Below, piece by piece: positions 16,331-55,570 of a DNA stretch of 64,000 bases. The stretch comes from Hydra vulgaris (lineage: Eukaryota; Cnidaria; Hydrozoa; Anthoathecata; Hydridae): contig NC_088934.1 in the NCBI RefSeq assembly GCF_038396675.1, positions 6,028,501-6,092,500 on the forward strand. The letters are read 5' to 3'. The notes under the pieces were generated by a model. It saw only the letters and a program-made list of their open reading frames with translations. It was not told the origin of the DNA and ran no database searches. Position 1 is the stretch's first letter; every line of letters starts with the position of its first letter. A program made the translations under genes and the position numbers.

Positions 16331-16708
16331 AACATTCATAAAGGGGTATAAAAAAAGAAAAAAAAGAAAAAAAATAAGGAATAAAAAAAACACAAAAAAT
16401 GGGATAAAATATATATATTTCTAAATAAAAAATACAAAAGTTACTTTTTTTTTTTTGAAGGTGACAACTTTGGCATACGCCACATTGCTTTATGCAAAAG
16501 TAGCGTTGGTTTATCGTCAGCGAGTGTGCCAATGAATGTTGCTGTAGTTTGAAATAGTAGGAATACATGGCTGTAAAAAAAATAGGATTAATAAATAAAA
16601 AATTTAATGATAAAAAAAAAAAGAAAAAAAAACAGAAAAAAATATACCTTTCATTTGTTTTCTAACTTTTTTGTTGGGTTTTCTGTTGCTGTATCCACTT
16701 GTTTTCAT
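16302..16708 (-). CDS. Small spliced viral gene, basic N-terminus and Cys motif
   Basis: From ATG at 16708 a 20-codon basic exon ends at 16648 with donor G|GTATAT. A 77-nt intron ends in an ACAG acceptor at 16571-16572, and exon 2 continues in frame with a hydrophobic/aromatic segment and CIKQCGVCQSC. The true 3' end is unclear: the frame stays open to 16302 through A/T-rich sequence and into gag debris, and another intron is possible at the A-run near 16440. The upstream context is the acceptor-like motif ending at 16725 plus AATAAAAAA. Function unknown. Confidence 0.5.
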
Positions 16709-16724
16709 TTTTTTATTAGTTTGG

Positions 16725-16982
16725 CTATAAATATATAATATTATTTTTATAATGTACAAAATTGTTTTCACAAACATAATAATATTGATCAACTGACCAT
16801 TGAGCATATTTCATAACACAATTATAAAAAAATTGAACATTATTATCATTAATATAAGGATTAAAATAGTGTGTTCTAAATAAACGGTGTAAATAAAATA
16901 TAATTCTTCTATGTATCCAAAAAAATAAATTATGATCGTTTAAAAAAGTTAATTTATAACTAATATAAAAAAATTCTTGGTT
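16725..16982 (-). pseudogene. Open minus-strand fragment without start codon
   Basis: An 86-codon frame rich in aromatic residues (Tyr, Phe, His, Asn), ending in TAG at 16725-16727. It is preceded by stops and has no ATG, so it is a 5'-damaged viral gene or an exon whose first part is elsewhere. Its stop codon overlaps the acceptor-like AG of the next gene. No family recognised. Confidence 0.4.
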
Positions 16983-17031
16983 TTACTATACAAGTAAAAA
17001 AACTATGAATTGATTCCCAAAAAAAAAAAGT

Positions 17032-17481
17032 TTAGATGAATTCTGGTTCTTGGGCACATTCAGGTGCTTCAGCTGGTTCTGGTATATGATTATAAAAATG
17101 AAATAGTTCTTCTTGTTTGGCTTCGATGACTGCACTTGGATATACTGCGTTCGGTGGTGAATAAATAGGTGGTAGATTTTTAATAATGCTTTCTTCATAA
17201 GTCGGTAGACGTGGTATTTTATTTTTATATTTGTTAAAAATATCATTTCGATGAATTACTTTACACATGTTGAGTAAAAATTCCAATTTACTTTCTAAGC
17301 TTTCATGAATATTTCCATTATAATCTTCTATGGCATTATCTTTGATATACTCTACAAGATCGTATGCGTTTTTTAATTTTTGTTTGATACCATGTGGAAG
17401 TATTAACACAAATCTAATACTTCTAACGTTTTCAAAAGTGAGCTCATCAGTTATTTGTCTGAAAACTTCCATTGCATTCAT
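17032..17481 (-). CDS. Death-effector-domain-like protein with PPxY motifs
   Basis: 149 codons. Residues 1-85 form a six-helix pattern like the death effector domains of FADD, caspase-8 and vFLIPs: a conserved start (MEVFRQITDEL), a hydrophobic VRSIRFVLIL helix, LVEYIKDNA, and helix 5-6 text LEFLLNMCKVIHRNDIF, matching the RxDL region. Residues 91-115 are proline-rich and contain LPTY (92-95) and PPIY (104-107), the latter a PPxY WW-ligand/late-domain motif. The start at 17481 is chosen because it follows the AG (17498-17499) and AATAAAAAA signal. Known DED proteins assemble death-receptor complexes; a decoy role here is inference. Confidence 0.6.
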   Translation of the reverse strand: MNAMEVFRQITDELTFENVRSIRFVLILPHGIKQKLKNAYDLVEYIKDNAIEDYNGNIHESLESKLEFLLNMCKVIHRNDIFNKYKNKIPRLPTYEESIIKNLPPIYSPPNAVYPSAVIEAKQEELFHFYNHIPEPAEAPECAQEPEFI

Positions 17482-17596
17482 TTTTTTATTAGTTAATCTA
17501 AAAAAATAATGGGTAATAATGATAGATAAAGTACAAAAAAAAACATATAAAAAAAATAGCAATGATAGAACAAATACATTTTTTACATAAAATATA

Positions 17597-18674
17597 TTAT
17601 TCAATAGTAATCATGATAAATAAATGATTATTAATAATAAATTGTTTTAGTTCTTCGTGTGAAATAAAATTGTTATAACCAACAGCTACATTATATTCAG
17701 TGGTAGGTTTATCAAAAGAACTATCGTTTAAAAGTTGAAGATAATTATTGTTGGTAGTAGTATGAGTAAAAAATTTATCTTTTCTCTCAAGGTTAAATTG
17801 ACATTTTTGGTAAAAGGCCATTTTAAAGAATCGTCCAGGTCACCTCGTAATAATTGAAAGTAAATGGCTAGTTTGTTTACGTCGGTACTTCGAGTATAAA
17901 CTTTTATACGATAACGATAACCTTCTGATGTGTACACGGGTTCTGTATAAAATGGTTCATCTGATAATAGCCTGAGATTCATTTGATCAAGTTTGATGAT
18001 TTGCGTGTCGTTAAAGATGTGTTGTATTACCTTTACTTCTTTAGGTTGTTGAATTGATTTTTTTAAAGCTAAGAATTCTGTGCTATTTTCTTGTAGGATT
18101 TGATAAAGTTTTGTTATTTCTTGTTTGAGATGTTCTGTATCTTGTTGATTTGCTAAAACCATCATGTTGTCATAAAAGAGACTTTTTAATTCTGCCATTT
18201 CTTTGTTCATTTCTGCTAGGGTTTGATGAAGTTTGACATTTTCTTCTTTTAGATTTTTAATTTCTTGGTCTTTTTCTTTAGAGTCAACTATTTGTTTAGT
18301 TGTAATTTCTTGAAGACTCTTCATTCTATTCATGATTTGATTAATAGAAAGATTCAAAATTTAAATTTTTCTTTTCTTCTTGAATTATTTGGTTCAAATT
18401 ACGATTTTGTTGTTCTTTATAATATCGTAAGCAGATGACAGAGTGTTCATAATAATCTTGATCATCGACTTTGGTATTACAAAAAAAACATATTTTTTTG
18501 TATATCTAGAAATTCATAATCACATTCATGGTTTAACAAATCTTGCACCTTTTTCGTACATGTAAAACATTCGTGGGAGTATTGTTCTGTAGAACAATCT
18601 GTTTGATGATTTAAAAGTTCTTCTGCACTAAATTATTTGTCACAAAAACAGCAAGGATATATGTTATCTGCCAT
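17597..18674 (-). pseudogene. TRAF-like protein: zinc fingers, coiled coil, MATH domain; broken
   Basis: From ATG at 18674 the frame has Cys/His finger text (CCFCDK, LLNHQTDC, then CFTCTKK), followed by another finger-like stretch, a heptad-rich coiled coil (18100-18357) and a MATH/TRAF-C domain. In the MATH part, EPFYTEPVYTSEGYRYRIKV, LKWPF and FDKPTTEYNVAVGY correspond to conserved beta-strand landmarks of TRAF2-type domains. An in-frame TAA (18633-18635) and at least two frameshifts, one inside the MATH domain near 17790, break it. TRAFs couple TNF-receptor family signals to NF-kB/JNK; a virus copy could divert that. Confidence 0.7.
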
Positions 18675-18758
18675 TTTTTTTATTAGTTGCTGAAAAAAAA
18701 CATTTATTTATATAAAACTATAAAAAAAAATATACATGTCTTTTTTACCATAAAAGAA

Positions 18759-18950
18759 TTAATAAATAAAATCACTCAATAAAACATATAAAAGAATTAA
18801 AATATAAATAATGTTTGTTTCAATATCTTTAATATCTTGTTCTTGTTTTTGTTTGAATATATCGTTAAAAGTTATGTTTTCAACCTCTTCAAATACGTCT
18901 CCAAAACCAGGAAACATGTCTTCATAATTTTCATTATTATTAGTTGTCAT
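18759..18950 (-). CDS. Small acidic protein with C-terminal membrane segment
   Basis: 63 codons. The first 45 residues are acidic and glutamine-rich; the last 18 (IIYILILLYVLLSDF) form one hydrophobic helix, so a tail-anchored topology is likely. Preceded by a T-tract and AG at 18962-18963. No family recognised. Confidence 0.5.
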   Translation of the reverse strand: MTTNNNENYEDMFPGFGDVFEEVENITFNDIFKQKQEQDIKDIETNIIYILILLYVLLSDFIY

Positions 18951-18999
18951 TATTATGTTTGCTAAAAAAAGAAAAAAGATATATTTACAAATTAAAAAA

Positions 19000-19426
19000 T
19001 TACAAATAAAGTTCGGGTAAATTGTCCATTTTATTAATAATGTCTAAAATATATTGTTCCCAATCCATTTCATTGAAGATCTCATGAATTTCTTTTTCTA
19101 TTTCTTCCTCTTCTTTTTCCACTTCTTCTTCTAACATCCGTGATTTTAGCTCTTCAATATAATCTGATTCTTCTTCATCCATTTCTTGTACTAATTGTTC
19201 TAAATATTTTTCATGATCTTCCTCTGTTAACTCCATTTCCATTAGTTCTTCCAAATCTTGTTCTTCTTCTTTTGTCAATAACAACTCGTGGTAGCATATA
19301 GTGTCTTCATTAATATTTTCTCCATAACTAATAGAAAAAAATGTATAAAAAGTGTATAAAAAATAAAAAAAATATAAAAAAAATGAAATAGGCTTACCAT
19401 CCACATTTTTTGATATATTGTTTCAT
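19000..19426 (-). CDS. Very acidic protein encoded by two exons
   Basis: Exon 1 (19398-19426) starts at ATG and ends in donor G|GTAAGC. A 70-nt T-rich intron ends CTATTAG at 19328, and exon 2 (19000-19327) continues in the same frame, giving 118 residues. Residues after about 10 are rich in Glu/Asp with LEELMEMELTEED-type heptads, suggesting an acidic coiled coil. Without splicing, the same DNA reads a hydrophobic run from the intron, which I regard as an artefact. Signal AG at 19447-19448. Function unknown. Confidence 0.6.
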
Positions 19427-19476
19427 TTTTTTAATATATTAGTTTGCTAAAAAAATAAAAAAAAGTTACAAAAACA

Positions 19477-20103
19477 TTATTGCAATATAAAATGTGTAAT
19501 TATTTCCATAGTTATATCTATATTTTTTTCATGTTCTAATTTATTTTCTTTTGTTGAAATGTCAAGAGACCACATCCATAAAGCATCATATAAAGCACGA
19601 GCTGCTTCGACTTCGGTTCCTTTTTTTTGATATATTAAGTTTAAAAATCTCATCATTCTTTCGTTGATATTATGGTAATCACATTGTATACATTCGATTT
19701 CACGTTTTTTATAGTCAAGATATTCTGCCAAAGTTTGCCATTGTGTTTGCAAATGTGCTGCTATTTTTAGTATTAATTGCATAAAATTCATTATTTTTTT
19801 GCTAAAAAATATAAAAATTTGATATAAATAATTCAATATAAATAATTTACATTGTTGTATATTATATAAAAGTTTTTCATCTTCCCATAATGATACTACA
19901 AAATACAAATGTTTGATTGCCAACTTTTTGTTTGGTTGTGTTAATATATATAGGGTTAAAACGTTTTTTATTTTATCAAATGTTTTTATGTAATTTTTAT
20001 TGATTTTTTTTATTTCACTTCTTCTAAACTTAAATAAAAACGCCAAATGTTTCCATTCGTGATGGAGTTGTTTTGAAGTGTAATTTATTATTTCTTTAAT
20101 CAT
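19477..20103 (-). CDS. Tandem death-domain protein, possibly two nested genes
   Basis: Residues 5-82 show a death-domain pattern: LHHEWKHLAFLF, RRSEIKKI, then VLTLYILTQPNKKLAIKHLY. From the internal Met at 19791 a second domain repeats it: HLQTQWQTLAEYLDYKKREI, then MRFLNLIYQKKGTEVEAARA. Compare FADD-type WRRLAR...I..IE. The linker between domains is AT-rich and contains its own T-tract/AG (19802-19803) just before the internal ATG, so it may be an intergenic region read through by chance. Either one tandem protein or two death-domain proteins are made. Adaptor mimicry is inferred. Confidence 0.6.
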   Translation of the reverse strand: MIKEIINYTSKQLHHEWKHLAFLFKFRRSEIKKINKNYIKTFDKIKNVLTLYILTQPNKKLAIKHLYFVVSLWEDEKLLYNIQQCKLFILNYLYQIFIFFSKKIMNFMQLILKIAAHLQTQWQTLAEYLDYKKREIECIQCDYHNINERMMRFLNLIYQKKGTEVEAARALYDALWMWSLDISTKENKLEHEKNIDITMEIITHFILQ

Positions 20104-20242
20104 TTTTTTATTCTAGTATATATAAAATAGAAATGTAGTTGCATATAAAAATATTAATGTATATAAAAAAAAAATAAAAAAAAACAACTATAAAATTTTT
20201 ATATTCTAAAAAAATATTTACAAAATTAAAAAAAAACATAAA

Positions 20243-20755
20243 CTATAAATTTTCTGGATCTGGACTCTCTAAAAAAAAAGACACAGAGAATATTAAAAAA
20301 ATATACTTTTTTTTATAAAATAAAAAAGGATCAAGTTTAACTTACGAGGAGAGTAGTCCCAGTGCTAGGGACCCACCTCTCTATTTGGAGGTGGATATGG
20401 ACTTTCTAAAAAAAAGGGAAATATTAAAAAAAATGAATTTTTTTATTATTAAAAAAAACTAGTAAAGTTAAACTTACGACGAGTGCGGGAAGGTGTATCG
20501 TTCATGACATTTCTTAACACTTTGCGAATATTACTTAGTGTTAGTAACTCTTGATCTATAAGAAAAAATAGTATTATGAAAAAATAATATTTTTTTATTA
20601 TAGATGTAAACCATAAAACAATTACCTCTTTTTGCATTGTACGCAAACAGTTGACAAATAGGGCGTTTTTTTCCATTTTCGATAACATAAAACTGGTCTA
20701 TAGTGCTATCATTAAATACTTCGTATTTTACTTTATTTATTGAAATATAATTCAT
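20243..20755 (-). CDS. Four-exon gene with alternative last exons
   Basis: Exon 1 20626-20755 (donor G|GTAATT), intron 70 nt, exon 2 20478-20555 (donor C|GTAAGT), intron 72 nt, exon 3 20346-20405 with a stop at 20365-20367 and its own donor, intron 77 nt, exon 4 20243-20268 with a stop. All acceptors are T-tract AG. Exons 3 and 4 begin alike (encoding QSPYP and QSPDP), so including or skipping exon 3 gives two C-termini on a 69-residue common part. The body has KVKYEVFNDSTIDQFYVIE and a basic helix. Signal AG at 20761-20762. No family recognised. Confidence 0.65.
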
Positions 20756-20855
20756 TTTAACTAAAAAAAGAGGTTTATTTAGGAATAAATACCATATTAT
20801 TTTTTTTGTAATAAATAAAAAATAGTTATAAATAAAAATATCATTTTTTATAAAA

Positions 20856-21119
20856 ATGCCTAAAATAAGGTATACTCCTAGATCATTAAACACTGTCGAT
20901 ATGGCGCATACAAAAACAACAGTTCCTAGAACAAAAAAAGCAGTTCAAACACAAACAAGTACAAAACAAATTTCAACAAATCGTAAACTTGGAAGAGTTG
21001 GTAAAAGAATAAAACGCTGGGTTCATACTGCCGAATCCTATGTCGATATTAAACATCAATTAAAAGAAGCAAACATAAGTCGAAAAATAGACAAAAATAA
21101 TAATGTATTTTATATATAA
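20856..21119 (+). CDS. Small basic protein with histone H3 tail-like segment
   Basis: 87 codons from the first ATG (20856), or 72 from ATG at 20901. From the second start the product begins MAHTKTTVP and continues to STKQISTNRK, resembling the H3 tail at ARTKQT and KQLATKAARK. The rest is basic, then a short charged helix. It lies alone on the plus strand within a minus-strand cluster. A virion chromatin or histone-mimic role is inference. No acceptor-like signal precedes either ATG. Confidence 0.55.
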   Translation: MPKIRYTPRSLNTVDMAHTKTTVPRTKKAVQTQTSTKQISTNRKLGRVGKRIKRWVHTAESYVDIKHQLKEANISRKIDKNNNVFYI

Positions 21120-21257
21120 AAAAAATTTATAAATTTAAATAAAAAAGTCTATTTATATTATATTTTAATTTTCGAAGTTGTTTTCTTCTTAATTTGTATT
21201 CGTTTTTTTTTTTCTAAAATAAAAAAATAAAATTCTTAAAAAAATGTAATTTTTTAT

Positions 21258-21692
21258 TTATAAATAATAATTTAAAAAATTAACTTTTTTTTTCAAAATA
21301 TTGTTTTCTTGGGGTTGAGTTGGAGTTTCTTGAGGTAGTGGTTGAGTTTCTTGAGGTAGTGAATCTTCAGCAAATTCTAATGGTGGTTCATTTGGTTCGT
21401 TTGGTTCATTTGGTTCATTTGGTTCGTTTGGTGGTTCATTTGGTGGATTGTTTGGTGGTTTTATTATGAAATCAATTTCATCTGCGTCGTCAAAAATACT
21501 CAAATTTGGAAAACTTAATTCGGGATCATCCTCGATGACTATAATTTCAGGTTCGTCATCACTAGTTAAAAGCACTTCATCTTCCGATAAATCTATCTCC
21601 TTTCCCACAACTTCGTCGTCCATATAATATTGTGCTTTTTTTACAGAGCGTTTGGTAAAGCGTGTTTTTGTCATTTTTGATTTTGTTAACAA
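21258..21692 (-). CDS. Acidic protein with Asn-Glu-Pro repeats
   Basis: 144 codons from 21692; ATG at 21674 is an equally good start. The N-terminus is basic (KTRFTKRSVKKAQY), followed by an acidic region and then a run of PNEP repeats and PLPQETP-type proline-rich text, ending in a short basic tail. Low complexity dominates, so disorder is expected. A TATA-like TACATAAAAAGCGTG lies upstream on the minus strand near 21700. No family recognised. Confidence 0.5.
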   Translation of the reverse strand: MLTKSKMTKTRFTKRSVKKAQYYMDDEVVGKEIDLSEDEVLLTSDDEPEIIVIEDDPELSFPNLSIFDDADEIDFIIKPPNNPPNEPPNEPNEPNEPNEPNEPPLEFAEDSLPQETQPLPQETPTQPQENNILKKKVNFLNYYL

Positions 21693-21748
21693 AAAACACG
21701 CTTTTTATGTATAAAATGTAATCTCTACAGATTAATGTGAAATAATAG

Positions 21749-21974
21749 CTAAAGTGATGCAACTTTATGTAATGAAAAGAAAATGCTGTGTCATGTTGGT
21801 TAAATTTAGAAACTTTTAATACCGCTTTTATGAACAAGATTAAAGAGAATAAAATACTAAATAACTAAAGTGATGCAACTTTATGTAATGAAAAGAAAAT
21901 GCTGTGTCAAGTTGGTTAAATTTAGAAACTTTTAATACCGCTTTTATGAACAAGATTAAAGAGATTAAAATACT
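21749..21974. repeat. 116-bp tandem repeat, two copies
   Basis: Units begin at 21749 and 21865 (ctaaagtgatgcaacttt) and match at nearly every base for about 110 nt. They lie between a minus-strand gene block to the left and a plus-strand block to the right. Position suggests a control or replication element; that is inference. Confidence 0.85.
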
Positions 21975-22287
21975 GAGCGTGTGAGAACGAGTGAGCGCAC
22001 GAGTGTGTGAGTAAGCAGGCTAAGGACTAAGGCAGGATTAAGTAAGTTAAGTAAGGACTAAGTAAGTAAGTAAGTAAGAATAAAATACGGCCGTATAAAA
22101 AATAAAGACAGTAAGAAAAAACATAAGTAAGTAGGCCTACTAAGACAAAGTAAAGACAGAATAAGTAAGGTTGTGTCAGGGTGACACTATGTTTTTTCTC
22201 TTGTAAAAAAAAAGATATAAATAAATACAAGTCAAAAAAAAAATACAAGTCAAAAAAAAGTTAAAGTCAAAAAAAAGTCAAAAAAAA
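21975..22287. repeat. Simple-sequence region (GTAAG and GTCAAAAAAA repeats)
   Basis: Contains gtgagcgcacgagtgtgtgag-type text, several gtaagtaagtaag runs and then three gtcaaaaaaaa units before ATG at 22288. No coding frame is supported. It forms the rest of the divergent spacer. Confidence 0.7.
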
Positions 22288-22726
22288 ATGTTAGAGTCAA
22301 AAATGGCTGCAGATAATATTGATTTTTCCCGTATGATTGTAAGACGGAATTTATTTTCAGCACCTTCAAAGTCAAAGCAATTTAAGACCCAAATATACAT
22401 CTAAATTACCCAAATATACAGTAGATGGAAAATGGCCTTTTCATAGGGATGCTTTTTTTGAATTTTTTGATAGGACCTCCTTTGATGAAAACGAGTTAAC
22501 CGATCCCAATAATACAGAACTAAGAGCTCTAAGACGAAAAAGAGTTAAGAAAAATTTAAAAAAAATAAAGCGTCAATATTGTAGAAAAGCACTGATGTGT
22601 TATCGAAAAACGAAAAGCAAGTATATAAATAATAAACAAAATTGCGAAATGAATCGAGTAGGAAAGCCGATATATCGTTTTGTTTTAACAAAAGTGGATC
22701 GCGATAAACACAGAAATATTTATTAA
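22288..22726 (+). pseudogene. Basic protein, frameshifted
   Basis: Starts MLESKMAADNIDFS and is open to about 22390. It then continues in another frame with YTVDGKWPFHRDAFFEF and a strongly basic C-terminal third (RRKRVKKNLKKIKRQY), ending at 22726. One indel near 22380 explains the break. Its stop lies 3 nt before the next ATG. A DNA-binding virion protein is plausible from charge alone. Confidence 0.5.
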
Positions 22727-22729
22727 AAA

Positions 22730-22933
22730 ATGAGTCATAGAAGACATAGAGGTCATAAAAATGCTAAAAGATATATTTTTGTTCATAAAAAATCGAGAGC
22801 TCATCCTAGACCTTATCATTCTTTAATCGGTAAAGGACGAAAACGTATACTTAGAAAACGCGGTAAAGGTATCCTTGGTAACCTATTAGGAAATATACCC
22901 GTACTTGGTGGTGTATTTAAAACTATATTTTAA
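22730..22933 (+). CDS. Basic core-peptide-like virion protein
   Basis: 67 codons. The first 45 residues are dense in Arg, Lys and His (MSHRRHRGHKNAKRY, then KGRKRILRKRGKG); the last 20 are a Gly-rich amphipathic helix (ILGNLLGNIPVLGGVFKTIF). This basic-then-hydrophobic design resembles adenovirus pX-like core peptides and small Polinton virion proteins. It follows the previous gene by 3 nt. DNA condensation or membrane action is inferred. Confidence 0.6.
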   Translation: MSHRRHRGHKNAKRYIFVHKKSRAHPRPYHSLIGKGRKRILRKRGKGILGNLLGNIPVLGGVFKTIF

Positions 22934-22982
22934 TCGGATTAAAAAAATATGTATAAAAAGGCTCAACTCGTTTACTAACAAA

Positions 22983-23445
22983 ATGAATTCAAAAGTATGC
23001 AAACATGCGAGAGAAAAACTCATATAAAAAAGTATTGCAACAAATGTTTTGTACAAAAATTTCGTTGTTATGTTGAAGAAAATTTAAAAGAATATCTATG
23101 GTTAATAAAAGACATGGAAAAGCAAAATCAAAAGCTCAAAAATTTAAGAACGGATACGAGCGCGTTTGGCGATTATATCCTTACTTATGAATACGAAAAC
23201 GGTGTTGTGGAAATTATCAGTGGCGATAAAGAAAATGGACACTTAAAAATATCTACTTTTTGGGGGGGGGGTTTATACTAGATTTAGATATTGTTAATAA
23301 ATTATATTGTTTATCGCATATAAATGATGTTGTTTTTTTTGTAGGTAATAAAATACCAAAAACATATAGATTAATAAAATATTTAATAGTGTTTTTTCTG
23401 TTTTTTTTTAAAAAAAGTACTATAAATTTGGTTTTTTTTTTTTAA
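22983..23445 (+). pseudogene. Small protein, frameshifted at start and in a G-run
   Basis: ATG 22983 follows a TATA-like tataaaaaggctc (22950-22962). The frame shifts after a few codons into 22997-23281 (CNKCFVQKF, helical middle, YILTYEYENGVVEII). Then a run of nine G at about 23262 leads to a second frame (23260-23445, GGGFILDLDIVNKL). Homopolymer slippage or sequence error is likely. The YENGVVEIISGD strand pair recalls the two following genes. Confidence 0.45.
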
Positions 23446-23507
23446 ATAGAAAATTTCATTTGAAGAAAAAAAAATCATTTGAAATAAACAAAAAAAATAG
23501 AGTTTAA

Positions 23508-23795
23508 ACTTGTTTAAACGAATTTTATAAAACGAATAATAAATTAGAAACTTCTTCCTTTACAACGGATGATAGTTTAAAAAAAGTCCAGGGTAATTTT
23601 AAATTATTTTTTCGTTTGGATGGAAGTAAACAAATCAAAGTAACTCGTGTTAATAATAAAGCCCATATTGTTTTTATTTATGGTGAAAACAAACACGAAT
23701 TTGAAATGGGTTATGAAGACTTTGTTGATGTTATTAAAGAGTCATTTAACGTCTGGCTACTCGAAGAAGTAGACATAAAAAATGAAGCATTTTAA
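23508..23795 (+). pseudogene. Paralogue of the next gene, start codon missing
   Basis: Open from 23508 without ATG. Contains FRLDGSKQIKVTRVNNKAHI, then IYGENKHEFEMGYEDFVDVI and WLLEE. The same order occurs in 23782-24142 (HRLKWGTIIKVTRSNDELII, then WLLSE), so the two are tandem duplicates. Its stop overlaps the next ATG. No known family recognised. Confidence 0.5.
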
Positions 23796-24142
23796 AGATT
23801 ATCTAGAGTTGTGTTATCCGTTTCCCGAAATTACAAGATTTTTATTTTTCACTATTTAAAACAAATAGTAAAGCAAAGGGTGATTTTTTATTGATACATC
23901 GTTTAAAATGGGGAACAATTATTAAAGTAACACGTTCCAATGATGAACTCATTATTGTGTTTATATATGAAGAAAGACACGAACATACTTTTGAAATTCC
24001 TTTGAAACATTTTTTATCGTATGTTTGCCGTTGTCAACAAAAATGGCTTTTAAGCGAAAAAGACAAAATTTTAGATCAAAGACACGTAAAAGTAATAGAA
24101 AAAGGATACGTAGAAGAGGAAGAGGATTGGCTGATTTTATAA
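23782..24142 (+). pseudogene. Tandem paralogue, frameshifted near its start
   Basis: ATG 23782 gives MKHFKDYLELCYPFPEI, then the frame shifts near 23840 into the open stretch 23891-24142 with KVTRSNDELIIVFIYEERHE and WLLSEKDK, ending in an acidic tail. A basic virion gene (from 24043) begins inside it in another frame. The function of this family is unknown. Confidence 0.5.
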
Positions 24143-24300
24143 CTCCTAAAAATGTAAAAAACGCATTGCAAGTGGGTTCGCTGTTATACGGTATAAAAAA
24201 AGCGTAGAAAGGCAAAAAAACAAAAACGGCTCCTGTTCCTGTTGTTACAAAACCTGCCAACCCTTATATGCCTCCGGATAAAGTGTTTGAAGTATATTAA
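24043..24300 (+). pseudogene. Basic core-peptide-like protein with internal TAG
   Basis: From ATG 24043: MAFKRKRQNFRSKTRKSNR, an Arg/Gly stretch, then LADFITPKNVKNALQVGSLL as an amphipathic helix. A TAG at 24205-24207 ends the main frame after 54 codons, yet the frame stays open with lysine- and proline-rich text (PVPVVTKPANPYMPPDK) to TAA at 24300, so the TAG is probably a mutation. It overlaps the preceding gene out of frame by about 100 nt. Confidence 0.55.
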
Positions 24301-24429
24301 AAAAACAGTTGTAAAAAAATATTATATTAATTCATTTAATGAATATATATGTACAAATAACAAATTGTTTTGTTTTTCTTCTTCTTTTTTCTTTTTGTAT
24401 CGTTGATAGTCAATGTTTTTTTTCCTTTA

Positions 24430-25760
24430 GGGGTCGTCCATAAAGTACGTACGCCAAAAATTTTGAAATTTGACCCCCCTCCCCCCTGTTGCCATGCGTA
24501 CTTTTATGTCCCCACCCCCCTTAAAAGTACGTACGTTTCTCAAAACCCCCCCCCCCCCCCACATAGCCCCCCCATCCCTCCTTTTTTTTTTTTTCTTAAT
24601 TAAAAAGTTTAATTAAAAAAAAAAAGACGGAGGGTACCTTAGATACTTTATACTATCTCAAAGCTTATTGCTTACGCATTTTAAAAACGTCTTCAAGTAT
24701 AAATGCAAATAATAATTTAAATAAATTTAAAATTTACTAATGTATGTGTGTATTTGGGCGAAAGGTTTATGCGGCGGCAATAGTCAACGGAGATCCAGGT
24801 TCGATTCTCGGTGAAATCTAGGAAAATATTTTTTGTTTTTTTAACGAATCAAATGTAAATAAACTATACTTAAGGTGGACGTTTTTTTCAGGCACCCCTC
24901 TTTAGTAAGTAAAAAACGAGTCTAAGGTGAGATCAGTAATATTGAAAACAAAGGGTAAAACCCAGTGGGAGGGAGCAACAGCAAATTTTGTGCCCTTTTG
25001 CTATTTTAAGAAGCTTTTTATTTTAGCAAAACCTAGCGGTCTTTGAGACGCGATTGACACGTTTTTTTTGGGGTGACTCCGTCCCATCAACCACGGCCCT
25101 CAGGTCTTACTCAGGGCCAGTATATAAGGGCGGGCATGTGTGCATGGGCCCCCTCAGGATTTTCTGATGTTTTGATTTTTGATGATAGAACACTTTCACA
25201 CAACGTGCAAACTTAAGTTTGTTAATATGCCAAATGAGGTGGCCTTGCAAAAAATTTGGATGGCGGAGGCCATCCAAATTTTTTTCCAAATCTAAAAGTT
25301 ATAACCATGCAAAATTTATACCCCTCTCATTTTGGGGGTAGGGAGGGTAAGCGTTTTAAGGCTTTTTGTTCACAGGCCTCCGCCATCCCGATATTTTGCA
25401 AGGTCTCCTCATTTGGCATAGGTATAAACAAACTTAAGTTATGAGTTTGCACGATGTGTGAAAGTGTCCTATCTGGAACATCAAAAAATTCTGAGGGCGC
25501 CCATACATGTGTGTGCATAAAGGAAAAATATACCCTCTACTTCATATACCATACATCTTTTTATGTTGGCAAACTAGAATCTTTAGTCAGAATGTAACTT
25601 TTCTATTGATTAGCTGGTTAATTGTGATAAATTAGAAAGTCGAAGTACGTACTTTTAAATTGAACCCCCCCCCCCCCCCCCTCCAATACGCTTTCGTACG
25701 CTTTTTGAAGACCCCCCCCCCTCTCCCCCCTATGAGCGTACGTACTTTTTGGACGACCCC
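24430..25760. mobile_element. PIF/Harbinger-like non-autonomous element
   Basis: Inverted termini GGGGTCGTCCATAAAGTACG (24430) and a near complement ending at 25760. A TTA triplet flanks both ends (24427-24429 and 25761-25763), the 3-bp target duplication of PIF/Harbinger elements. No transposase is encoded. It has long C- and G-runs near the ends and a large internal palindrome. It separates the viral blocks to either side and truncated a minus-strand gene at its right edge. Confidence 0.8.
25128..25518. repeat. Large imperfect palindrome inside the Harbinger-like element
   Basis: Left arm about 25128-25275 and right arm about 25370-25518 pair over most of their length: tgtgcatgggc with gcccatacatg, tcacacaacgtgcaaactta with a matching complement, and ggcggaggccat with atggcggaggc-type text. 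It is probably a second inverted-repeat element nested in the first. Confidence 0.7.
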
Positions 25761-25866
25761 TTACAAGACAAGCAACACGTCTTCTGAAGATGTATTTTGC
25801 CCGCTCTTTTAGTAATGGTGTTAAATATCCATACTTCTTTATTTAATAAGTGAATCGTGCAATTTT

Positions 25867-25986
25867 TTAATAAAGTGTCATTTTTTTTTCTCTTAACACG
25901 AGGAAATAGAGTTCACCATAACCATTACACGTAGCGCATTTTTCTTCGACAATTTCTTCTAGAAATGTGTGTGCTGTTCTCTTCAT
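25867..25986 (-). pseudogene. Truncated small protein with CxxCxGxG motif
   Basis: 39 codons from ATG 25986: MKRTAHTFLEEIVEEKCATC, then NGYGELYF. The CATCNGYG string is a DnaJ-type CxxCxGxG half-site. Beyond the stop, other frames keep coding-like text up to the Harbinger terminus at 25760, so insertion and indels removed the C-terminus. Confidence 0.4.
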
Positions 25987-26087
25987 GATTCTGTTTATAT
26001 TAAATTCAGAGCAATCTGCCTTTTTGTTTCTTTTTTAGTCATGACATCATCAATAGGTACATCTAAAAATTGATTGGCAGTCTTTAA

Positions 26088-27158
26088 TCATGTATAATTG
26101 TTTGCATAAATTCTATCCATTTCATTTTGAATCATGTAATAAATATTTTCCTCGTTCATCACAGATGGAATGGCTTGACGATCCAATAGGGATAACTTAT
26201 CCCACGTAGCTTCATAATTTTTTCTTAAGAATCCTGCATCTTTTAAAAATCTTTTAAGAGCATTTTGAGCCAATATTTGTTTTTCATAAATATCATAATG
26301 CAAAGGAATTTGTTTTGTTTTCATAGGCAATAGATCACGTTCCAGATTTTCCTGTTTTTTCATATAAAAATGCAACTGCATGTCTTTTTCAAACAGTTGT
26401 TTAGCAGTGTTATCAAGGTGTGGAAAGAGTTCGTGTTTAATAAATTGAAAAAATAAATAAAGATTTATCTGAACTAGTGAAGAGGCATGAAGCGTTGTTA
26501 CTTCATAAAAATAATGGTTTAACAGTCTGCACAACGAAGGTAAATATATTTGATCTGTATATAATACATTTTCGCTGCGAAAGACTAGAGCTACAAAATA
26601 AGCGGCAAATGCACCACATAAACTACTATCATTCCATTGAAAAGGAAATTTATTGTATGAAAAAAATACATTTTGATTGCCAGTGATTTTGCTATATTTT
26701 AAAATAAATTTGGTAAACCAATAAAATTCACGATTTTCTGCTGTCCATTCTGTAGGAAAATGATTGGATTGACGTATATAAGAATTAATTTCAATTTCGT
26801 TGTAGTTAATGTTAATAGTGTTGATTTGTATATTGCTATTGACTTCTTCTACTGCTTCAAACAAATATTTATTAAATCTTAAATGTTTTGGAATTTGTTG
26901 CAATACACTTTCTTCACCTAAACTATCAAAACAAAAAAAATGACCCTTGTCTATTTTCATCAACACTTTCCAATGTTGACCTGCTTCTTTTGTAGTTTCA
27001 TTGTTGTAAATGATAAAGGAGCCATTTTTTTTCATTTGTTGAATAATATGAATATGTGTTTTTGTTTGACTTAGTTCATCAAAAGCATAAAATCCTCTAA
27101 AATAATTTTTAAATTCTGAATTTTTAAAAAAACGAGACAAAGATTCATCAGTAGCCAT
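26088..27158 (-). CDS. Adenain-like (Ulp1/C5-type) virion maturation protease
   Basis: 356 codons, uninterrupted. Catalytic elements appear in the C5/C48 order: His62 in AGQHWKVLM, Asp78 in FFCFDSLG, Gln174 and Cys181 in FPFQWNDSSLCGAFAAYF, matching the adenovirus protease oxyanion Gln and nucleophile Cys. A C-terminal extension of about 165 helical residues exceeds the ~200-residue adenain length. In Polintons and adenoviruses this enzyme cleaves virion precursors. Candidate substrates with matching sites lie at 55358-56126. Start fixed by the AG (27174-27175) and AATAAAAAAATG context. Confidence 0.8.
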   Translation of the reverse strand: MATDESLSRFFKNSEFKNYFRGFYAFDELSQTKTHIHIIQQMKKNGSFIIYNNETTKEAGQHWKVLMKIDKGHFFCFDSLGEESVLQQIPKHLRFNKYLFEAVEEVNSNIQINTININYNEIEINSYIRQSNHFPTEWTAENREFYWFTKFILKYSKITGNQNVFFSYNKFPFQWNDSSLCGAFAAYFVALVFRSENVLYTDQIYLPSLCRLLNHYFYEVTTLHASSLVQINLYLFFQFIKHELFPHLDNTAKQLFEKDMQLHFYMKKQENLERDLLPMKTKQIPLHYDIYEKQILAQNALKRFLKDAGFLRKNYEATWDKLSLLDRQAIPSVMNEENIYYMIQNEMDRIYANNYT

Positions 27159-27162
27159 TTTT

Positions 27163-27801
27163 TTATTCTTTTTCTAAATTAAAAAAACTCGCAATAAATA
27201 GTGTTACAATAGCGTGTAATATATTAACAAATAAAGTTTTTTTATCGCTGGTTCCTTCCTTTATAATTCCTTCAATGTTTCTTTTAACAGATTTCTTTTT
27301 TAAACCACCATCTAGTTTTTCTATCAAAGAAAAGACGGTAGGTATTACTTTTGAAGTAAACGTATCCACAAAACCGTCAGTTTGATCACCTTCTGTTAGA
27401 ACCATAGGTGGTTTGATATTTCTTTCTAGCAGCAAAAGAGTGAGCTTGGATTTATAGAGTTCTATTACATAATTATCACCATATGTTTCTTTCAAATTGT
27501 CAAAGTAGTTGAGATGAATAGGACAAAGTTGAGGATTTTCGAGTAAATTATTAAATTCACTGTTTTTAAAACATTTTGCAATACTGTAAGAATTTAATGT
27601 TATCCTCTTAGAATTGAGTACATTTTGTAAAAATTCAAATGAACTTTTATCTGTAAAATGTTCTTCTTCTACGTGATCAGATAAAGGTGAAGAATTTCCA
27701 GACTTGTGTTCATAATGTTTATATCTTTTAGATACTTCATCGAGCGCGCACACCGCGCAATTGTTGTGAATTTTTTTAATGATGCTATCAACGCGAATCA
27801 T
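27163..27801 (-). CDS. Unknown viral protein with C-terminal membrane segment
   Basis: 212 codons, intact, 4 nt upstream of the protease gene on the same strand. Has CAVCALDE near the N-terminus, charged helices in the middle and a hydrophobic end (LFVNILHAIVTLFIASFFNL) predicting a tail anchor. Only 114 nt separate its start from the plus-strand exonuclease. No family recognised. Confidence 0.55.
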   Translation of the reverse strand: MIRVDSIIKKIHNNCAVCALDEVSKRYKHYEHKSGNSSPLSDHVEEEHFTDKSSFEFLQNVLNSKRITLNSYSIAKCFKNSEFNNLLENPQLCPIHLNYFDNLKETYGDNYVIELYKSKLTLLLLERNIKPPMVLTEGDQTDGFVDTFTSKVIPTVFSLIEKLDGGLKKKSVKRNIEGIIKEGTSDKKTLFVNILHAIVTLFIASFFNLEKE

Positions 27802-27915
27802 TTTTTAATTAAAAAAATGTAAAAAAATATTTTAAAATTTGATTTTTTATACTTTTTTATTCATTTTATTAAAAGAATACGCTTCTTTTTTTAATAAAAA
27901 AGTATTTTTTTTTAG

Positions 27916-28674
27916 TTGTGGTTGTTAGATTTTGAATTTATTACCTATAAAGAGATTTACAAGTGGGGCAGAAACTGCATTAGAGAGTTATGTTTGAGAT
28001 CACTTGTCGATAAAAAGTTTTTTCACACGCAAGTTATACCATGTGAAAAGTTTGAAAATTTGGATGAAAAGGATAAAAAAGTATTTTCATACTGCTTAAA
28101 AAATATTCATGGACTAGAGTATTATCCGTCTTTCAAGTATACTGGTGAAATTATATTTTGCTGCTCCGTAGTGGATTACTTAAAGACTATATTTTCAAAA
28201 TTCGAATATAATGTCGTATTTTATAAAGGTGGAAACATGGAAAAAGATGTGTTGTCTACAATAAATGATCAAAAAATAGCTACATTTGATTTAAACAAAT
28301 TATTGTTTCCCAAATTATGTAAATTGCCTTGCTATTTTAACTTTGAAAGTTTGTGTTTAGAACATTATCAACATAACTATACGAAAAAACATACCCACGA
28401 ACATTGTCCTAAATATGAAACATTTATGTTTGCGCACTATTTAGAAGATTTTGCAAACGGATTTATAGAAAATATCGACGTGCAAGATTATACAGTATTA
28501 AATGTTGAAGAATACTCGAGTTTTATTAAATTTATAAAAGACAATGTCAAATGTGTTTATATATTAAGAAAAGAGACTTGCGAATGCTTTGACAATATAT
28601 TTCGTATTAATAAACTTGTATATCAACTTTTTGATATGGAAAAAAAAAAAAAAAAAAAATTTTCTTGTTTATAA
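27916..28674 (+). CDS. DEDD-type 3'-5' exonuclease-like protein
   Basis: Open for 252 codons but without ATG: the frame begins TTG TGG TTG immediately after a T-tract and AG (27914-27915), with TAG directly upstream in frame. LLDFEFIT at residues 3-10 gives the DxE of motif I, FYKGGNMEKDVL a middle motif, and HEHCPKYETFMFAHYLED the C-terminal His/Asp region. The pattern is that of DnaQ-like exonucleases. A start codon must come from an upstream exon or leader, or has been lost. The C-terminus ends in a long A-run (lysines) of doubtful length. Confidence 0.6.
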   Translation: MWLLDFEFITYKEIYKWGRNCIRELCLRSLVDKKFFHTQVIPCEKFENLDEKDKKVFSYCLKNIHGLEYYPSFKYTGEIIFCCSVVDYLKTIFSKFEYNVVFYKGGNMEKDVLSTINDQKIATFDLNKLLFPKLCKLPCYFNFESLCLEHYQHNYTKKHTHEHCPKYETFMFAHYLEDFANGFIENIDVQDYTVLNVEEYSSFIKFIKDNVKCVYILRKETCECFDNIFRINKLVYQLFDMEKKKKKKFSCL

Positions 28675-29076
28675 TCCATCTTCCGCAGTCACATAATATT
28701 TGGTGTAATGATCTTTTTTAACAATACTTTTTAACAATACTATTTTCTCGTTTTCATAATTATAAACATCGTCCTCTTTTCTGTATAAAATCTTTGAAAT
28801 GTTAAAATTTCTTTTAAAGAAAAAAAACCATTGAGCTGTGGGAAACATTTCTATTAAACTTTTTTCGTGAAAATTGCAACGTTCAAAGGCTTTGTAAATG
28901 TACACTTTATCTCCTTCTTGATGTACTTTTTTTTGTATAAAATATTCATAAATAGGAACTGGTGTGTATAGGGTGTAATAGCCATTATGAAAAACTTTAT
29001 CGTCAAACGAAAAGCAAGGCGGTTGGTCCATGCAAGCTGGATAAACGTAATTTAATAGTTTACAATTTTTCTTCAA
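28669..29076 (-). CDS. Unknown viral protein, tail-to-tail with the exonuclease
   Basis: 135 codons. Features: CMDQPPCFSFDDKVFHNGYY, a VPIYEYF segment and many aromatic residues; a compact globular fold seems likely. Its stop region overlaps the end of the plus-strand exonuclease by 6 nt. No family recognised. Confidence 0.5.
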   Translation of the reverse strand: MKKNCKLLNYVYPACMDQPPCFSFDDKVFHNGYYTLYTPVPIYEYFIQKKVHQEGDKVYIYKAFERCNFHEKSLIEMFPTAQWFFFFKRNFNISKILYRKEDDVYNYENEKIVLLKSIVKKDHYTKYYVTAEDGL

Positions 29077-29132
29077 GTTATCATACTCCTATTTGTTAGA
29101 TAGATAAGGAAACAAAAAATAATACTTTAAAG

Positions 29133-29654
29133 TCAGTTTAAGTTTGCTTTTCCATGAAGTGCATTTTTTTCCATGTTTTTTGATTTGAAGTAAAGTTTAT
29201 ATACTTTAACAAAGTCTTCTAGTTGTTTTTTTAATTCTTCGTGTTGTTTTTCTACTGTTGTTTTGGTTACATTTAAAAAATCATCGTTTATCATGCGACA
29301 TACTTCTAGCATGCTCGTTCTCCACGATGGTGATTGTTCTGCAAAATTCATATAACGACGTGAAGGTTTTTCAAACAAATGAAGCTTATTTTCATAGTCT
29401 TTAGCTATAAAGATATAATACAAATCCTTGTATTTTTCTTCTTCCAAGTTCAATTCCAAGTTAAAATTTTTTAAATACGTAAAGATAATGTCTTGCCATT
29501 CTTCATACGTGTTATTTAAATGGTGAAATTCAAACAACATAAGATGTAATTCATTATCTGGATAAAAAAGTTGAACAGCTTTGATGAGACTTTCGTCGAG
29601 TTGTTTGCTAGTCATTTTCTCTTTCAAAAATGAACTAGCATTTATTTTTTTCAC
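29133..29654 (-). CDS. Unknown helical viral protein
   Basis: 173 codons from 29654, or from ATG 29612 (MTSKQLDESL). Helix-rich, with a C-terminal coiled-coil-like stretch (VEKQHEELKKQLEDFVKVY). A TATA-like ctatataaaggg stands just upstream on the minus strand near 29660, so this gene probably has its own promoter. No family recognised. Confidence 0.5.
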   Translation of the reverse strand: MKKINASSFLKEKMTSKQLDESLIKAVQLFYPDNELHLMLFEFHHLNNTYEEWQDIIFTYLKNFNLELNLEEEKYKDLYYIFIAKDYENKLHLFEKPSRRYMNFAEQSPSWRTSMLEVCRMINDDFLNVTKTTVEKQHEELKKQLEDFVKVYKLYFKSKNMEKNALHGKANLN

Positions 29655-29761
29655 CCTTTATATAGGAAATAGAGATCAGAAAAAAACAAGTATTTTTAAT
29701 ATTAAAACAGGTTTTTTAATTCAAAAATTACAAAAATTTTCTTAAAAACTACAAAAAAATA

Positions 29762-30466
29762 TTATTCTTCGTCTTCTTCTAATACTTCTGGTACTTCTGG
29801 TTCGACTTTAGTTTTTTTTGTTTCGATTTCAGCAAGCTCGACACAAGCTCTCTTCAAATTTTGATTCAAATTTCGAGAAACACCATTTTTAATTAACGAA
29901 TTGTGAAAAGACGGTTCTATAGCCATCAGTCTTGCGTATTCTGTAGCATGAATTTCGTCTTCTTCTTTTGCTAATCGTATATCAAAATTGTTAAACTCAA
30001 TGGTTTTTATTATGCGAGTTTTAGGGTAAGCCACTGTCATATAGGCTTTGTTTTTAGCTTCTTGCATACTCACTATTAAAGTTTGCAATACTTTTTTGGT
30101 CATTTTGTTATGATTAAATATAAAAACAACATTATTAGTTACTTCGCCTTTGGACAATTTAAATGTGTTGTCGTCTTTTGTTAATTTTAGCTCTGATCTA
30201 AACAAATAATTTGCTTTGTTGAGATCACACATTTCTCTATATCTCCATGGTAATAAGATTTCACAGCCCTCATTTTTTGGTTTGTAAATCAATTCTTTTT
30301 TGTAATAATTAAATTGTGCCAACGGTTTGAGAGGGACACTAGAATATTGTTTCTCTTTCACATTTTTTTCTTCTTTAAATTCAATTAACCACAAAGTAGC
30401 AGCTGCTAAATCTGCAAATTTAACATAGGTGTTATCGTTGCAGTAAACAATTTCAAACTCTGCCAT
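29762..30466 (-). CDS. Unknown protein with acidic tail, candidate DNA-binding protein
   Basis: 234 codons. Mixed alpha/beta sequence with basic patches (KKELIYKPKNEG, then KKVLQTLIVSM) ends in a strongly acidic tail (VEPEVPEVLEEDEE). Acidic tails are common in single-stranded DNA-binding proteins of replication systems, and the gene is divergent to the dUTPase from a shared spacer; that function remains a guess. Its promoter has a TATAAAAAGAG-type box. Confidence 0.5.
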   Translation of the reverse strand: MAEFEIVYCNDNTYVKFADLAAATLWLIEFKEEKNVKEKQYSSVPLKPLAQFNYYKKELIYKPKNEGCEILLPWRYREMCDLNKANYLFRSELKLTKDDNTFKLSKGEVTNNVVFIFNHNKMTKKVLQTLIVSMQEAKNKAYMTVAYPKTRIIKTIEFNNFDIRLAKEEDEIHATEYARLMAIEPSFHNSLIKNGVSRNLNQNLKRACVELAEIETKKTKVEPEVPEVLEEDEE

Positions 30467-30770
30467 TTTTTTGTTGTTCGTTGTGTTGTGAATGAACTTT
30501 TAAATGAAAATGAACTCTTTTTATACTATTTGAGTTGAAAAGAGAGATTAAAAAAAAACAATTACTAAACAAGTCTTTTAAAAAAAATGTTAATCCTTAA
30601 TCAAGAGTCTAAAGTTCAATGTGGTGTGATGTACTTTAAACTTTGTACTTTATACTTTTAATTCTGTTTTAATGATAGAGATAATGTTGTTATGACTACT
30701 ATTTTATATAAAAAGAGTGAAAAAAAACTTGTTCAAATCATCTTCTTGACAAGACAGCGAGATAGATAAA
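30467..30770. promoter_or_regulatory. Divergent promoter region with paired TATA boxes
   Basis: On the plus strand TATATAAAAAGAGTGA lies at about 30703-30718, 53-68 nt before the dUTPase ATG. On the minus strand AGTATAAAAAGAGTTC lies at about 30510-30525, some 45-60 nt before the start of the leftward gene. The two share TATAAAAAGAGT. Similar boxes occur before 22983 and 29654. Confidence 0.6.
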
Positions 30771-31253
30771 ATGGAAAAGGAAGAAAATAAAGAGTTAAAA
30801 TCACTCGAAATTACAGATATTCATGAATGGTCTTTTTATGAAACAAAAGAGAGCGCTTGTTTTGATCTGAGAAGCTCAAAGGATGTTATACTTCAAGCAC
30901 ATCAACGTATTTTAGTAAGTACTAGAGTGTATATATATGAAATGGATTCAAATTTAGCAGGACAGGTATATTCAAAATCAGGTATAGCTTACAAAAATGG
31001 TGTGGTAGTGTTTAATGCTCCAGGAATAATAGACCCCGATTATAAAGAGGAAGTTAAAGTCTTATTGATGAATCATTCAGAAGAATATTATGTGATTAAA
31101 CGTGGAAATGCTATTGCTCAAATGGGATTTGTGAAAATTTTTAAAGCTGACAAAAACATAATAGAGTTCGATGGGTGTTGTTGTCGTGGAGTGAAAATGT
31201 TAATGATTAAAGATGTAGAAAGAAAGGGTGGTTTTGGTTCCACTGGAAAATAA
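30771..31253 (+). CDS. dut: dUTP pyrophosphatase
   Basis: 160 codons, intact, with all five motifs of the trimeric dUTPase family: ACFDLRS (29-35), YSKSG (67-71), NAPGIIDPDYKEE (82-94), RGNAIAQM (111-118) and RKGGFGSTGK (151-160). It hydrolyses dUTP to dUMP and pyrophosphate, limiting uracil incorporation. Length and motif spacing are normal; motif III has EE where many enzymes have Gly. An insertion-like CCC segment (residues 136-138) precedes motif V. It reads rightward from the divergent promoter. Confidence 0.95.
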   Translation: MEKEENKELKSLEITDIHEWSFYETKESACFDLRSSKDVILQAHQRILVSTRVYIYEMDSNLAGQVYSKSGIAYKNGVVVFNAPGIIDPDYKEEVKVLLMNHSEEYYVIKRGNAIAQMGFVKIFKADKNIIEFDGCCCRGVKMLMIKDVERKGGFGSTGK

Positions 31254-31328
31254 TTTTTTTTTTTTTTTGTAAAATATTTTTGTTATATTTTGTAAATTTT
31301 TTTTATTTTTTTTAGATTAGTAAAAATT

Positions 31329-31868: not shown

Positions 31869-31999
31869 CTTTTTAACAAATTTGACTGAATTAATAACTT
31901 TTTACTTATAGTTATATTGAATGTAATCACGATTTAAATTATGAATTTAAACATTTATCTGTATAATTTTTTTTATTTTTTAGATAACTAATTAAAAAA

Positions 32000-32428: not shown

Positions 32429-32457
32429 TTTTTTTTAAATTAACTAATAAAAAAAAC

Positions 32458-32951: not shown

Positions 32952-33083
32952 CTAACTTGTTTTTTAAATTATTTTGTACTTTAAAACTTTGTTTGTACTT
33001 TAAAACTTTGTATTTTAACTTTAAATATTTTGTACTTTTTATACTTTAAAACTTTGTATTTTTTTTAGGTAAACTAATAAAAA

Positions 33084-33425: not shown

Positions 33426-33446
33426 CAAAAAAAAAGAGATGTGGCT

Positions 33447-33605: not shown

Positions 33606-33637
33606 ACTTTTTTTTTCTTTAGATTACATAATAAAAA

Positions 33638-34121: not shown

Positions 34122-34182
34122 ATCTTTTTTGTAATTATTTTTTGTAATTATTTTTTGTAATTTTCAGATTACATAATAAAAA

Positions 34183-55567: not shown

Positions 55568-55570
55568 AAA

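What the first reader, a model, noticed from the sequence alone, without database searches (positions are those of the whole stretch)
17032..20103. A virus-like element carrying a death-domain/DED/TRAF signalling module
Within 3 kb on one strand lie a DED-like protein (17032-17481), a TRAF-like protein with fingers, coiled coil and MATH domain (17597-18674) and a one- or two-copy death-domain protein (19477-20103). A further MATH protein sits at 31329-31868 and another death-domain-like gene at 44336-44615. These are the parts of a TNF-receptor/FADD pathway. Viral FLIPs and other death-fold mimics are known in poxviruses and herpesviruses, but a set of DED, DD and TRAF-C in one Polinton-like virus is not something I know to be described. 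The intact MATH-only protein would be a natural decoy.
Basis: partly seen in the sequence, partly recalled or inferred. Interest (0 to 1): 0.9.

Follow-up and report, generated by a model that had tools for sequence, protein, structure and literature searches.

The report
Hydra virus-like element with death-pathway mimics
A virus-like mobile element present in many copies in a Hydra genome carries small stand-alone versions of the protein parts that animal cells use to relay death signals, so it probably interferes with a cell-suicide defence that Hydra would then share with us.

Summary
The observation largely holds and the main reading is supported. A ~40 kb Polinton-like element in a 911 Mb Hydra genome carries a DED gene, a TRAF gene, death-domain genes and a MATH-only gene. 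Corrections: the TRAF gene is broken in this copy, but long open frames exist elsewhere; the 'two-copy' death-domain protein is two genes (DD-A, DD-B) in 13 of 14 other copies examined; the 44.3 kb death domain (DD-C) is broken here, intact in the 8 copies fetched (picked as open). Searches of the genome returned 150 match rows each for DED, DD and TRAF (capped). Order is conserved: 77 of 114 protease matches have DED downstream on the same strand. dN/dS is 0.19-0.48. A second family keeps the DED with a similar tail plus a DD; a third carries MATH, DEDs, a DD and an intronless FADD-like protein nearest to a host FADD-like gene. No caspase, kinase or RING match was found in the cassette. I read the set as decoys of the TNF-receptor/FADD/TRAF pathway; location and conservation are shown, decoy action is inferred. 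The DED call rests on sub-cut-off profile matches and structure prediction was inconclusive. No held paper joins 'polinton' and 'death domain'.

The parts
16338..56200 (.). Polinton-like element, approximate extent
   Evidence: In 5 of 29 other DED loci homology ends at 16338 and in 4 more at 16358-16368; GC falls from 0.37 to 0.27 near 16 kb and rises near 56 kb; right edge uncertain; no terminal inverted repeat found
17032..17481 (-). DED gene, 149 aa: one death effector domain (residues 7-87) plus conserved tail with LPxY and PPxY motifs
   Evidence: PF01335 1.9e-5, below cut-off; 28 of 28 relatives match; dN/dS 0.21
17597..18674 (-). TRAF gene (C2HC-like fingers, coiled coil, MATH), broken in this copy
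   Evidence: MATH 1.7e-10 and 4.8e-5 in two frames; stop and frame changes; long open frames in other copies
18759..18950 (-). 63-aa ORF of the cassette, no family match
   Evidence: leader before ATG; no Pfam match
19477..19791 (-). DD-B, single death domain, 104 aa with its own ATG and leader
   Evidence: Death 1.7e-8, above cut-off; 8 of 8 relatives scanned match
19822..20103 (-). DD-A, single death domain; runs on in frame into DD-B in this copy only by lack of a stop
   Evidence: Death 0.0037 here, below cut-off; 12 of 12 scanned match, best 5.1e-6; separate ORF in 13 of 14 other copies
26088..27158 (-). protease candidate (recognised by motif from memory), used as element anchor
   Evidence: 114 matches in own genome; no Pfam or useful PDB match
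30771..31253 (+). dUTPase
   Evidence: PF00692 4.2e-20
31329..31868 (+). MATH-only protein, 179 aa
   Evidence: PF21355 1.4e-16; 151 matches in own genome
37213..38334 (+). PIF1-like helicase in two ORFs
   Evidence: PF05970 2.1e-36 for the first ORF; both match family 3's helicase
39516..43964 (+). DNA polymerase B candidate, fragmented (DTDS motif recognised from memory)
   Evidence: ORFs; no Pfam match above cut-off
44293..44615 (+). DD-C, single death domain, broken in this copy
   Evidence: piece 0.023; intact in 8 fetched copies; opposite-strand Death match about 17.3 kb from the protease in 37 of 114
44757..45941 (+). packaging-type ATPase candidate
   Evidence: Pox_A32 8.5e-4, below cut-off
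46853..49276 (+). large protein with weak integrase-like C-terminal part
   Evidence: NF033577 0.0039 at residues 709-787, far below cut-off
50170..51795 (+). capsid candidate by position and from memory; shorter than in other copies
   Evidence: 80 matches in own genome, several in open frames of 1041-1064 aa; no PDB match
53888..55075 (+). minor capsid candidate by position and from memory only
   Evidence: ORF; no Pfam match

Best explanation
A large family of Polinton-like integrating viruses of Hydra, with recently spread members, carries a conserved non-structural cassette that copies the interaction domains, but no recognised effector domain, of the death-receptor pathway: three single death domains (DD-A, DD-B, DD-C), a single DED with a conserved tail, a RING-less TRAF and a MATH-only protein. 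Most likely they act as stand-alone decoys at successive steps: DDs at receptor-adaptor contacts, the DED at FADD-caspase contacts, TRAF and MATH at receptor-TRAF contacts, so that an infected cell neither dies nor signals. Shown: location in the element, conserved order and strand, purifying selection, domain identity by profile, no detected caspase, kinase or RING. Inferred: expression, partners, direction of the effect.
For: Domain matches. Co-localisation: 77 of 114 protease matches have DED downstream on the same strand within 20 kb, 3 of 114 on the opposite strand; 95 of 150 DED copies have DD upstream within 8 kb; 37 of 114 protease matches have an opposite-strand Death match 10-25 kb upstream, median 17.3 kb as in the window. 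dN/dS: DED 0.21, DD-A 0.29, DD-B 0.48, TRAF 0.27. Nine copies carry equal-scoring open frames for TRAF, DED, DD-C and capsid candidate, so recent copies keep the cassette. Leader shared with the helicase gene. Related cassettes in two other families.
Against: No function, expression or binding was tested. The DED of the window and its family is below the Pfam cut-off and its alignment found no death fold in the PDB. Structure models are poor. The one tested viral TRAF that I read about promotes apoptosis (PMC3352826). 36 of 150 DED copies have neither a listed DD nor a listed protease nearby. TRAF and DD-C are broken in this copy. dN/dS sets mostly exclude rows with stops, which biases them down.
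Confidence: 0.55

Rival explanations
1. The proteins are element-borne but promote death or signalling: they nucleate DD or DED assemblies or act as adaptors, to release virions or to kill cells carrying a competing virus.
For: [quoted passage not shown] Family 3 has an adaptor-like protein with both DED and DD.
Against: Family 1 has single domains and its TRAF has no RING match, unlike ORF111L.
Confidence: 0.22
2. The element genes now serve the Hydra host (domesticated decoys or immune regulators).
For: Very high copy number and a host genome rich in DED and Death matches.
Against: The cassette stays with the element's other genes in order and strand, and equal-scoring recent copies keep the capsid candidate open as well, as expected of a virus lineage.
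Confidence: 0.06
3. Part of the set has another role, for example the coiled coil plus MATH of TRAF as a trimeric virion part.
For: MATH/TRAF domains form trimers (recalled).
Against: TRAF, MATH-only, DED and DD-B share the leader with the helicase gene, while 0 of 16 other starts, capsid candidates included, have it (groups chosen after looking).
Confidence: 0.07
4. They are host genes next to or nested in an old element.
For: Hydra has its own DED and Death genes.
Against: Conserved order in many copies on all fifteen contigs taken together; the element DEDs match each other better than the 12 host DEDs sampled.
Confidence: 0.01

Closest known systems
Polinton/Maverick elements and adintoviruses; Hydra Polinton-1 (P1-HM) is named in a figure legend of PMC11071308 (passage seen)
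   Same: integrating, multi-copy, about 40 kb, PIF1-type helicase, ATPase and candidate polymerase, protease and capsid genes; PMC11071296 says that most mammal-associated adintoviruses appear to encode anti-apoptotic gene homologues (passage)
   Different: a set of DD, DED, TRAF and MATH genes; PMC11071296 has no occurrence of 'death', 'traf' or 'hydra' in its main text
ISKNV ORF111L, viral TRAF of megalocytiviruses (PMC3352826: abstract and section 18)
   Same: virus-encoded coiled coil plus MATH
   Different: ORF111L has a RING and promotes apoptosis; the Hydra element TRAF has C2HC-like fingers and no RING match and comes with DED and DD genes
vFLIP of gammaherpesviruses and poxviruses (recalled)
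   Same: virus DED protein without caspase
   Different: vFLIPs have two tandem DEDs; here one DED plus a PY-motif tail
CARD-only and pyrin-only proteins, and TRAF1 (recalled)
   Same: single interaction domain, or RING-less TRAF, that modulates a signalling complex
   Different: here DD, DED and MATH versions lie together in one mobile element

Membership tests
Polinton / adintovirus-like element | protein-primed family B DNA polymerase | tested here: inconclusive
   fragmented ORFs 39516-43964 with a DTDS motif; no Pfam match
Polinton / adintovirus-like element | retroviral-type integrase | tested here: inconclusive
   IS481-type match 0.0039 at residues 709-787, below cut-off; Pfam none
Polinton / adintovirus-like element | packaging ATPase | tested here: inconclusive
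   Pox_A32 8.5e-4, 19.3 bits against 22.8
Polinton / adintovirus-like element | adenovirus-type protease and double jelly-roll capsid protein | tested here: inconclusive
   no Pfam or PDB match for the protease or capsid candidates; assignment is from memory
Polinton / adintovirus-like element | terminal inverted repeats | tested here: not met
   none found in the window; ends may be lost in this copy, so the element is called Polinton-like, not a Polinton
Death domain (PF00531) | score above curated cut-off | tested here: met
   DD-B 34.9 bits, DD-C of other copies 41.6 and 47.8, cut-off 22.6; DD-A of the window 17.8, below
Death effector domain (PF01335) | score above curated cut-off | tested here: not met
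   window 25.3 bits against 35.9; best family-1 relative 1.4e-7; family 3 members reach 38.0 and 53.4
Death effector domain (PF01335) | six-helix death fold | tested here: inconclusive
   pLDDT 46.9; weak death-fold hits
Death effector domain (PF01335) | RxDL motif (recalled) | tested here: met
   RNDI in the window; R78 and D80 in at least 90% and I81 in all of 28; IGRTDL in family 2
TRAF family | coiled coil plus TRAF-C/MATH domain | tested here: met
   MATH above cut-off in 4 of 4 open copies scanned; coiled coil only by inspection of heptad-like sequence
TRAF family | N-terminal RING (absent in TRAF1, recalled) | tested here: not met
   no RING match at E <= 1 in 4 open copies
vFLIP | two tandem DEDs | tested here: not met
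   one DED stretch only

The most novel reading that the evidence does not exclude
Polinton-like viruses of Hydra carry a multi-node decoy kit against the TNF-receptor/FADD/TRAF pathway (three death domains, a DED with a ubiquitin-ligase-type PY tail, a RING-less TRAF, a MATH decoy), gathered at least twice, once as an intronless FADD-like gene, and kept under selection in recently spread copies. This would mean that death-receptor signalling already served as an antiviral defence in cnidarians.
Probability: 0.5. Interest if true: 0.92.

Novelty: new variant of a known kind. Interest (0 to 1): 0.85.

Why it matters
Virus mimics of death-receptor parts are known to me mainly from viruses of vertebrates. 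A conserved set in an integrating virus-like family of a cnidarian points to an old arms race over extrinsic cell death, gives a genetic handle on what Hydra's TNF receptor/FADD pathway is for, and warns that some 'TRAF-like' genes in Hydra annotation may be element genes.

Tried and rejected
Host-gene reading: rejected by co-localisation. 'Two-copy death-domain protein' as the general form: rejected, 13 of 14 other copies do not span both domains; L099 does. Terminal inverted repeat search: nothing. Protein database searches for DD and DED: no relative at E <= 10; MATH-only: two Hydra proteins. Viral-contig scans with the minor capsid candidate, capsid candidate, ATPase and DED alignment: no relative confirmed. 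AlphaFold on single sequences: low confidence. PDB profile search with the DED alignment: five weak hits, none a death fold, which counts against the DED call. PDB search with the single DD ORF: THOC1 death domain 0.0047 best. PDB searches for protease and capsid candidates: nothing useful. Considered and not tested: peptide-groove residues of the MATH domains and TRAF-binding motifs in the DED tail (too degenerate). Paper searches: no paper describing this cassette was noticed in the listings; the library is partial, and the founding adintovirus paper is not held.
Full report
What is there. The window is G000:C15:6028501-6092500 of a 911.5 Mb genome in 15 contigs. The MATH-only protein is 85% and 73% identical to two Hydra vulgaris proteins named TRAF1-like and TRAF2-like, so the host is a Hydra; H. 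vulgaris itself is likely from contig lengths, which is inference. From about 16.3 to about 56 kb lies one element: in 5 of 29 other DED loci homology stops at 16338; the right edge is uncertain and no terminal inverted repeat was found. It holds a dUTPase (4.2e-20), a PIF1 helicase (2.1e-36), a poxvirus A32-like ATPase (8.5e-4, below cut-off), a weak integrase-like region (0.0039) and candidate protease, polymerase and capsid genes that I recognise by position or motif only. A Hydra Polinton, P1-HM, is named in a figure legend of PMC11071308 (passage seen).

The domains. DED gene 17032-17481: PF01335 at 1.9e-5, below the curated cut-off. In an alignment of 28 sequences (window plus 27 relatives, 61-97% identical to it) 28 of 28 match PF01335, best 1.4e-7. 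Against this: a PDB search with that alignment found no death fold and the single-sequence model is poor (pLDDT 46.9), although its best Foldseek hits are death folds (E 0.44 and worse). Death domains: DD-B 1.7e-8; DD-A 0.0037 in the window, below cut-off; 12 of 12 DD-A and 8 of 8 DD-B sequences scanned match PF00531. PDB profile searches give RIPK1 (7.6e-4) for DD-A and THOC1 (1.1e-4) and RIPK1 (0.012) for DD-B as best hits, all death domains; FADD and CRADD follow at E 0.45 and worse, and 3 of the 32 rows are unrelated. DD-C at 44.3 kb is broken here and intact in the 8 family-1 copies fetched, picked as open; the two scanned give 1.3e-10 and 1.7e-12. TRAF: broken here; in 9 of 30 DED loci (the window's own among the 30) my filter found a long open TRAF frame of 315-364 aa, and L049 has a 369-aa frame that the filter missed. 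Four were scanned: MATH 1.9e-16 to 8.9e-20, no RING match at E <= 1. MATH-only: 1.4e-16.

It belongs to the element. Own-genome searches gave 114 protease, 151 MATH-only, 80 capsid-candidate and 150 each of DED, DD and TRAF match rows; only the best candidates are scored, so all are lower bounds, and the DD rows count DD-A and DD-B of one copy twice in places. Of 114 protease matches 77 have DED downstream on the same strand within 20 kb and 3 have it on the opposite strand. Of 150 DED copies 95 have a DD upstream within 8 kb (median 2.07 kb), 77 a protease, 58 both and 36 neither. Of 114 protease matches 37 have an opposite-strand Death match 10-25 kb upstream, median 17.3 kb, the window's spacing, and 28 have DED, DD-A/B and DD-C; 44 of 150 Death rows lie upstream of an element anchor on the opposite strand against 2 in a same-strand control (8-40 kb). 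28 of 29 other DED loci align into TRAF; L055 barely does.

It is kept. Median pairwise dN/dS: DED 0.21 (373 of 378 pairs within the dS limits), domain 0.19 (324 of 378), tail 0.21 (375 of 378); DD-A 0.29 (95 of 105 pairs), DD-B 0.48 (63 of 66; 12 of 15 rows); TRAF 0.27 (34 of 36; nine rows, two of them identical). Rows with stops were left out of the DED, DD-B and TRAF sets, which biases these values down. Nine copies have equal-scoring open frames for TRAF, DED, DD-C and the capsid candidate (1064 aa): on C2, C3 (two), C10 (three), C14 and C15 (two). They must have spread recently.

The DED tail. L92, P93, Y95, Y107, S116, V118, E120, K122 and Q123 are invariant in 28 of 28 and P104, P105 in at least 90%, giving LPxY and PP[VI]Y, motifs of the kind bound by WW domains (recalled). 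Family 2 keeps LPTYE and a YP..V...AKQ.ELL part but not PP[VI]Y.

The leader. A T-tract and AG 5-24 bases before the ATG precede DED, TRAF, DD-B, MATH-only, the helicase and eight small genes: 13 of 15 starts that I grouped as non-structural (DD-A and 36382 lack it), 0 of 16 others, 53 of 1369 ATGs overall. I chose pattern and groups after looking, so this is description, not a test. It resembles a splice acceptor. Hydra uses spliced-leader trans-splicing (recalled), so the cassette may be made as polycistronic RNA; untested.

Related elements. Family 2: DED with the related tail (L122: PF01335 1.3e-7, below cut-off) and a 96-aa DD (2.4e-12), seven DED-DD pairs about 22 kb apart. Family 3, examined at one place (C3:70821000-70841000): MATH 2e-14, DED 2e-9 (above cut-off), DED 5.1e-8, DD 2.5e-9 and an intronless 175-aa FADD-like protein with DED 3.2e-14 and DD 4.9e-10. 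The FADD-like gene has 8 copies (77-100% identical), 4 of them without stops. The next best match in the genome is C14:3226336, 45% over the DD, with a DED 33% identical 2 kb before it: probably a two-exon host FADD-like gene. Family 3 shares helicase (2.4e-17), the 36382 gene (4.7e-28), MATH (3.6e-7) and a DD (1e-6) with the window. Among 25 DED domains compared (12 of them host-like), those of families 1 and 2 and the 110-aa DED of family 3 match each other best, the FADD-like DED matches the host FADD-like DED best outside its own family (1.3e-15), and the 100-aa DED of family 3 matches element and host DEDs about equally (2.2e-8 and 3.8e-8). So at least two captures are likely, by similarity only; no tree was built.

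How it works, most likely. No family-1 cassette protein has a caspase, kinase or RING match, so each could bind but not signal on. Decoy action at three steps is the simplest reading. [quoted passage not shown]

Known or new. Viral TRAF, vFLIP (recalled) and anti-apoptotic genes of mammal-associated adintoviruses (PMC11071296, passage) are known. No held paper joins 'polinton' and 'death domain' or 'adintovirus' and 'death domain', and none of the 10 papers looked relevant by title. The library is partial, so this does not show that the cassette is undescribed. New variant of a known kind.

Noticed in passing
L123:5586-6113 (C3:70826585-70827109): Intronless FADD-like protein (DED plus DD, 175 aa) in a related element; 8 copies, at least five of them in the outermost 1.5 Mb of a contig; nearest other gene is a two-part host FADD-like locus on C14.
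   Followed up: partly
17032-37213, starts listed: T-tract/AG leader shortly before 13 of 15 non-structural starts, which resembles trans-splice acceptors of an operon-like region.
   Followed up: partly
17035-17214 (DED tail): Conserved LPxY and PPxY motifs, suggesting WW-domain (NEDD4-type) binding.
   Followed up: partly
34796-36131: Tandem diverged repeats that include small leader-preceded genes, as of a gene family growing in place.
   Followed up: no
44410-44471: Short CCCGAG/CCCTAA-like repeat array inside the broken DD-C of this copy.
   Followed up: no
1-2918 and 9959-12872: 99.4% identical direct repeat of 2.9 kb outside the element.
   Followed up: no
C1, C2, C14 of G000: 64 of 89 PF01335 rows pass the cut-off, most of them in clusters on these contigs: a large host DED expansion.
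   Followed up: no
P0001, P0002: Two proteins that NCBI names Hydra vulgaris TRAF1-like and TRAF2-like are MATH-only relatives of the element gene and probably element-borne (inference).
   Followed up: no
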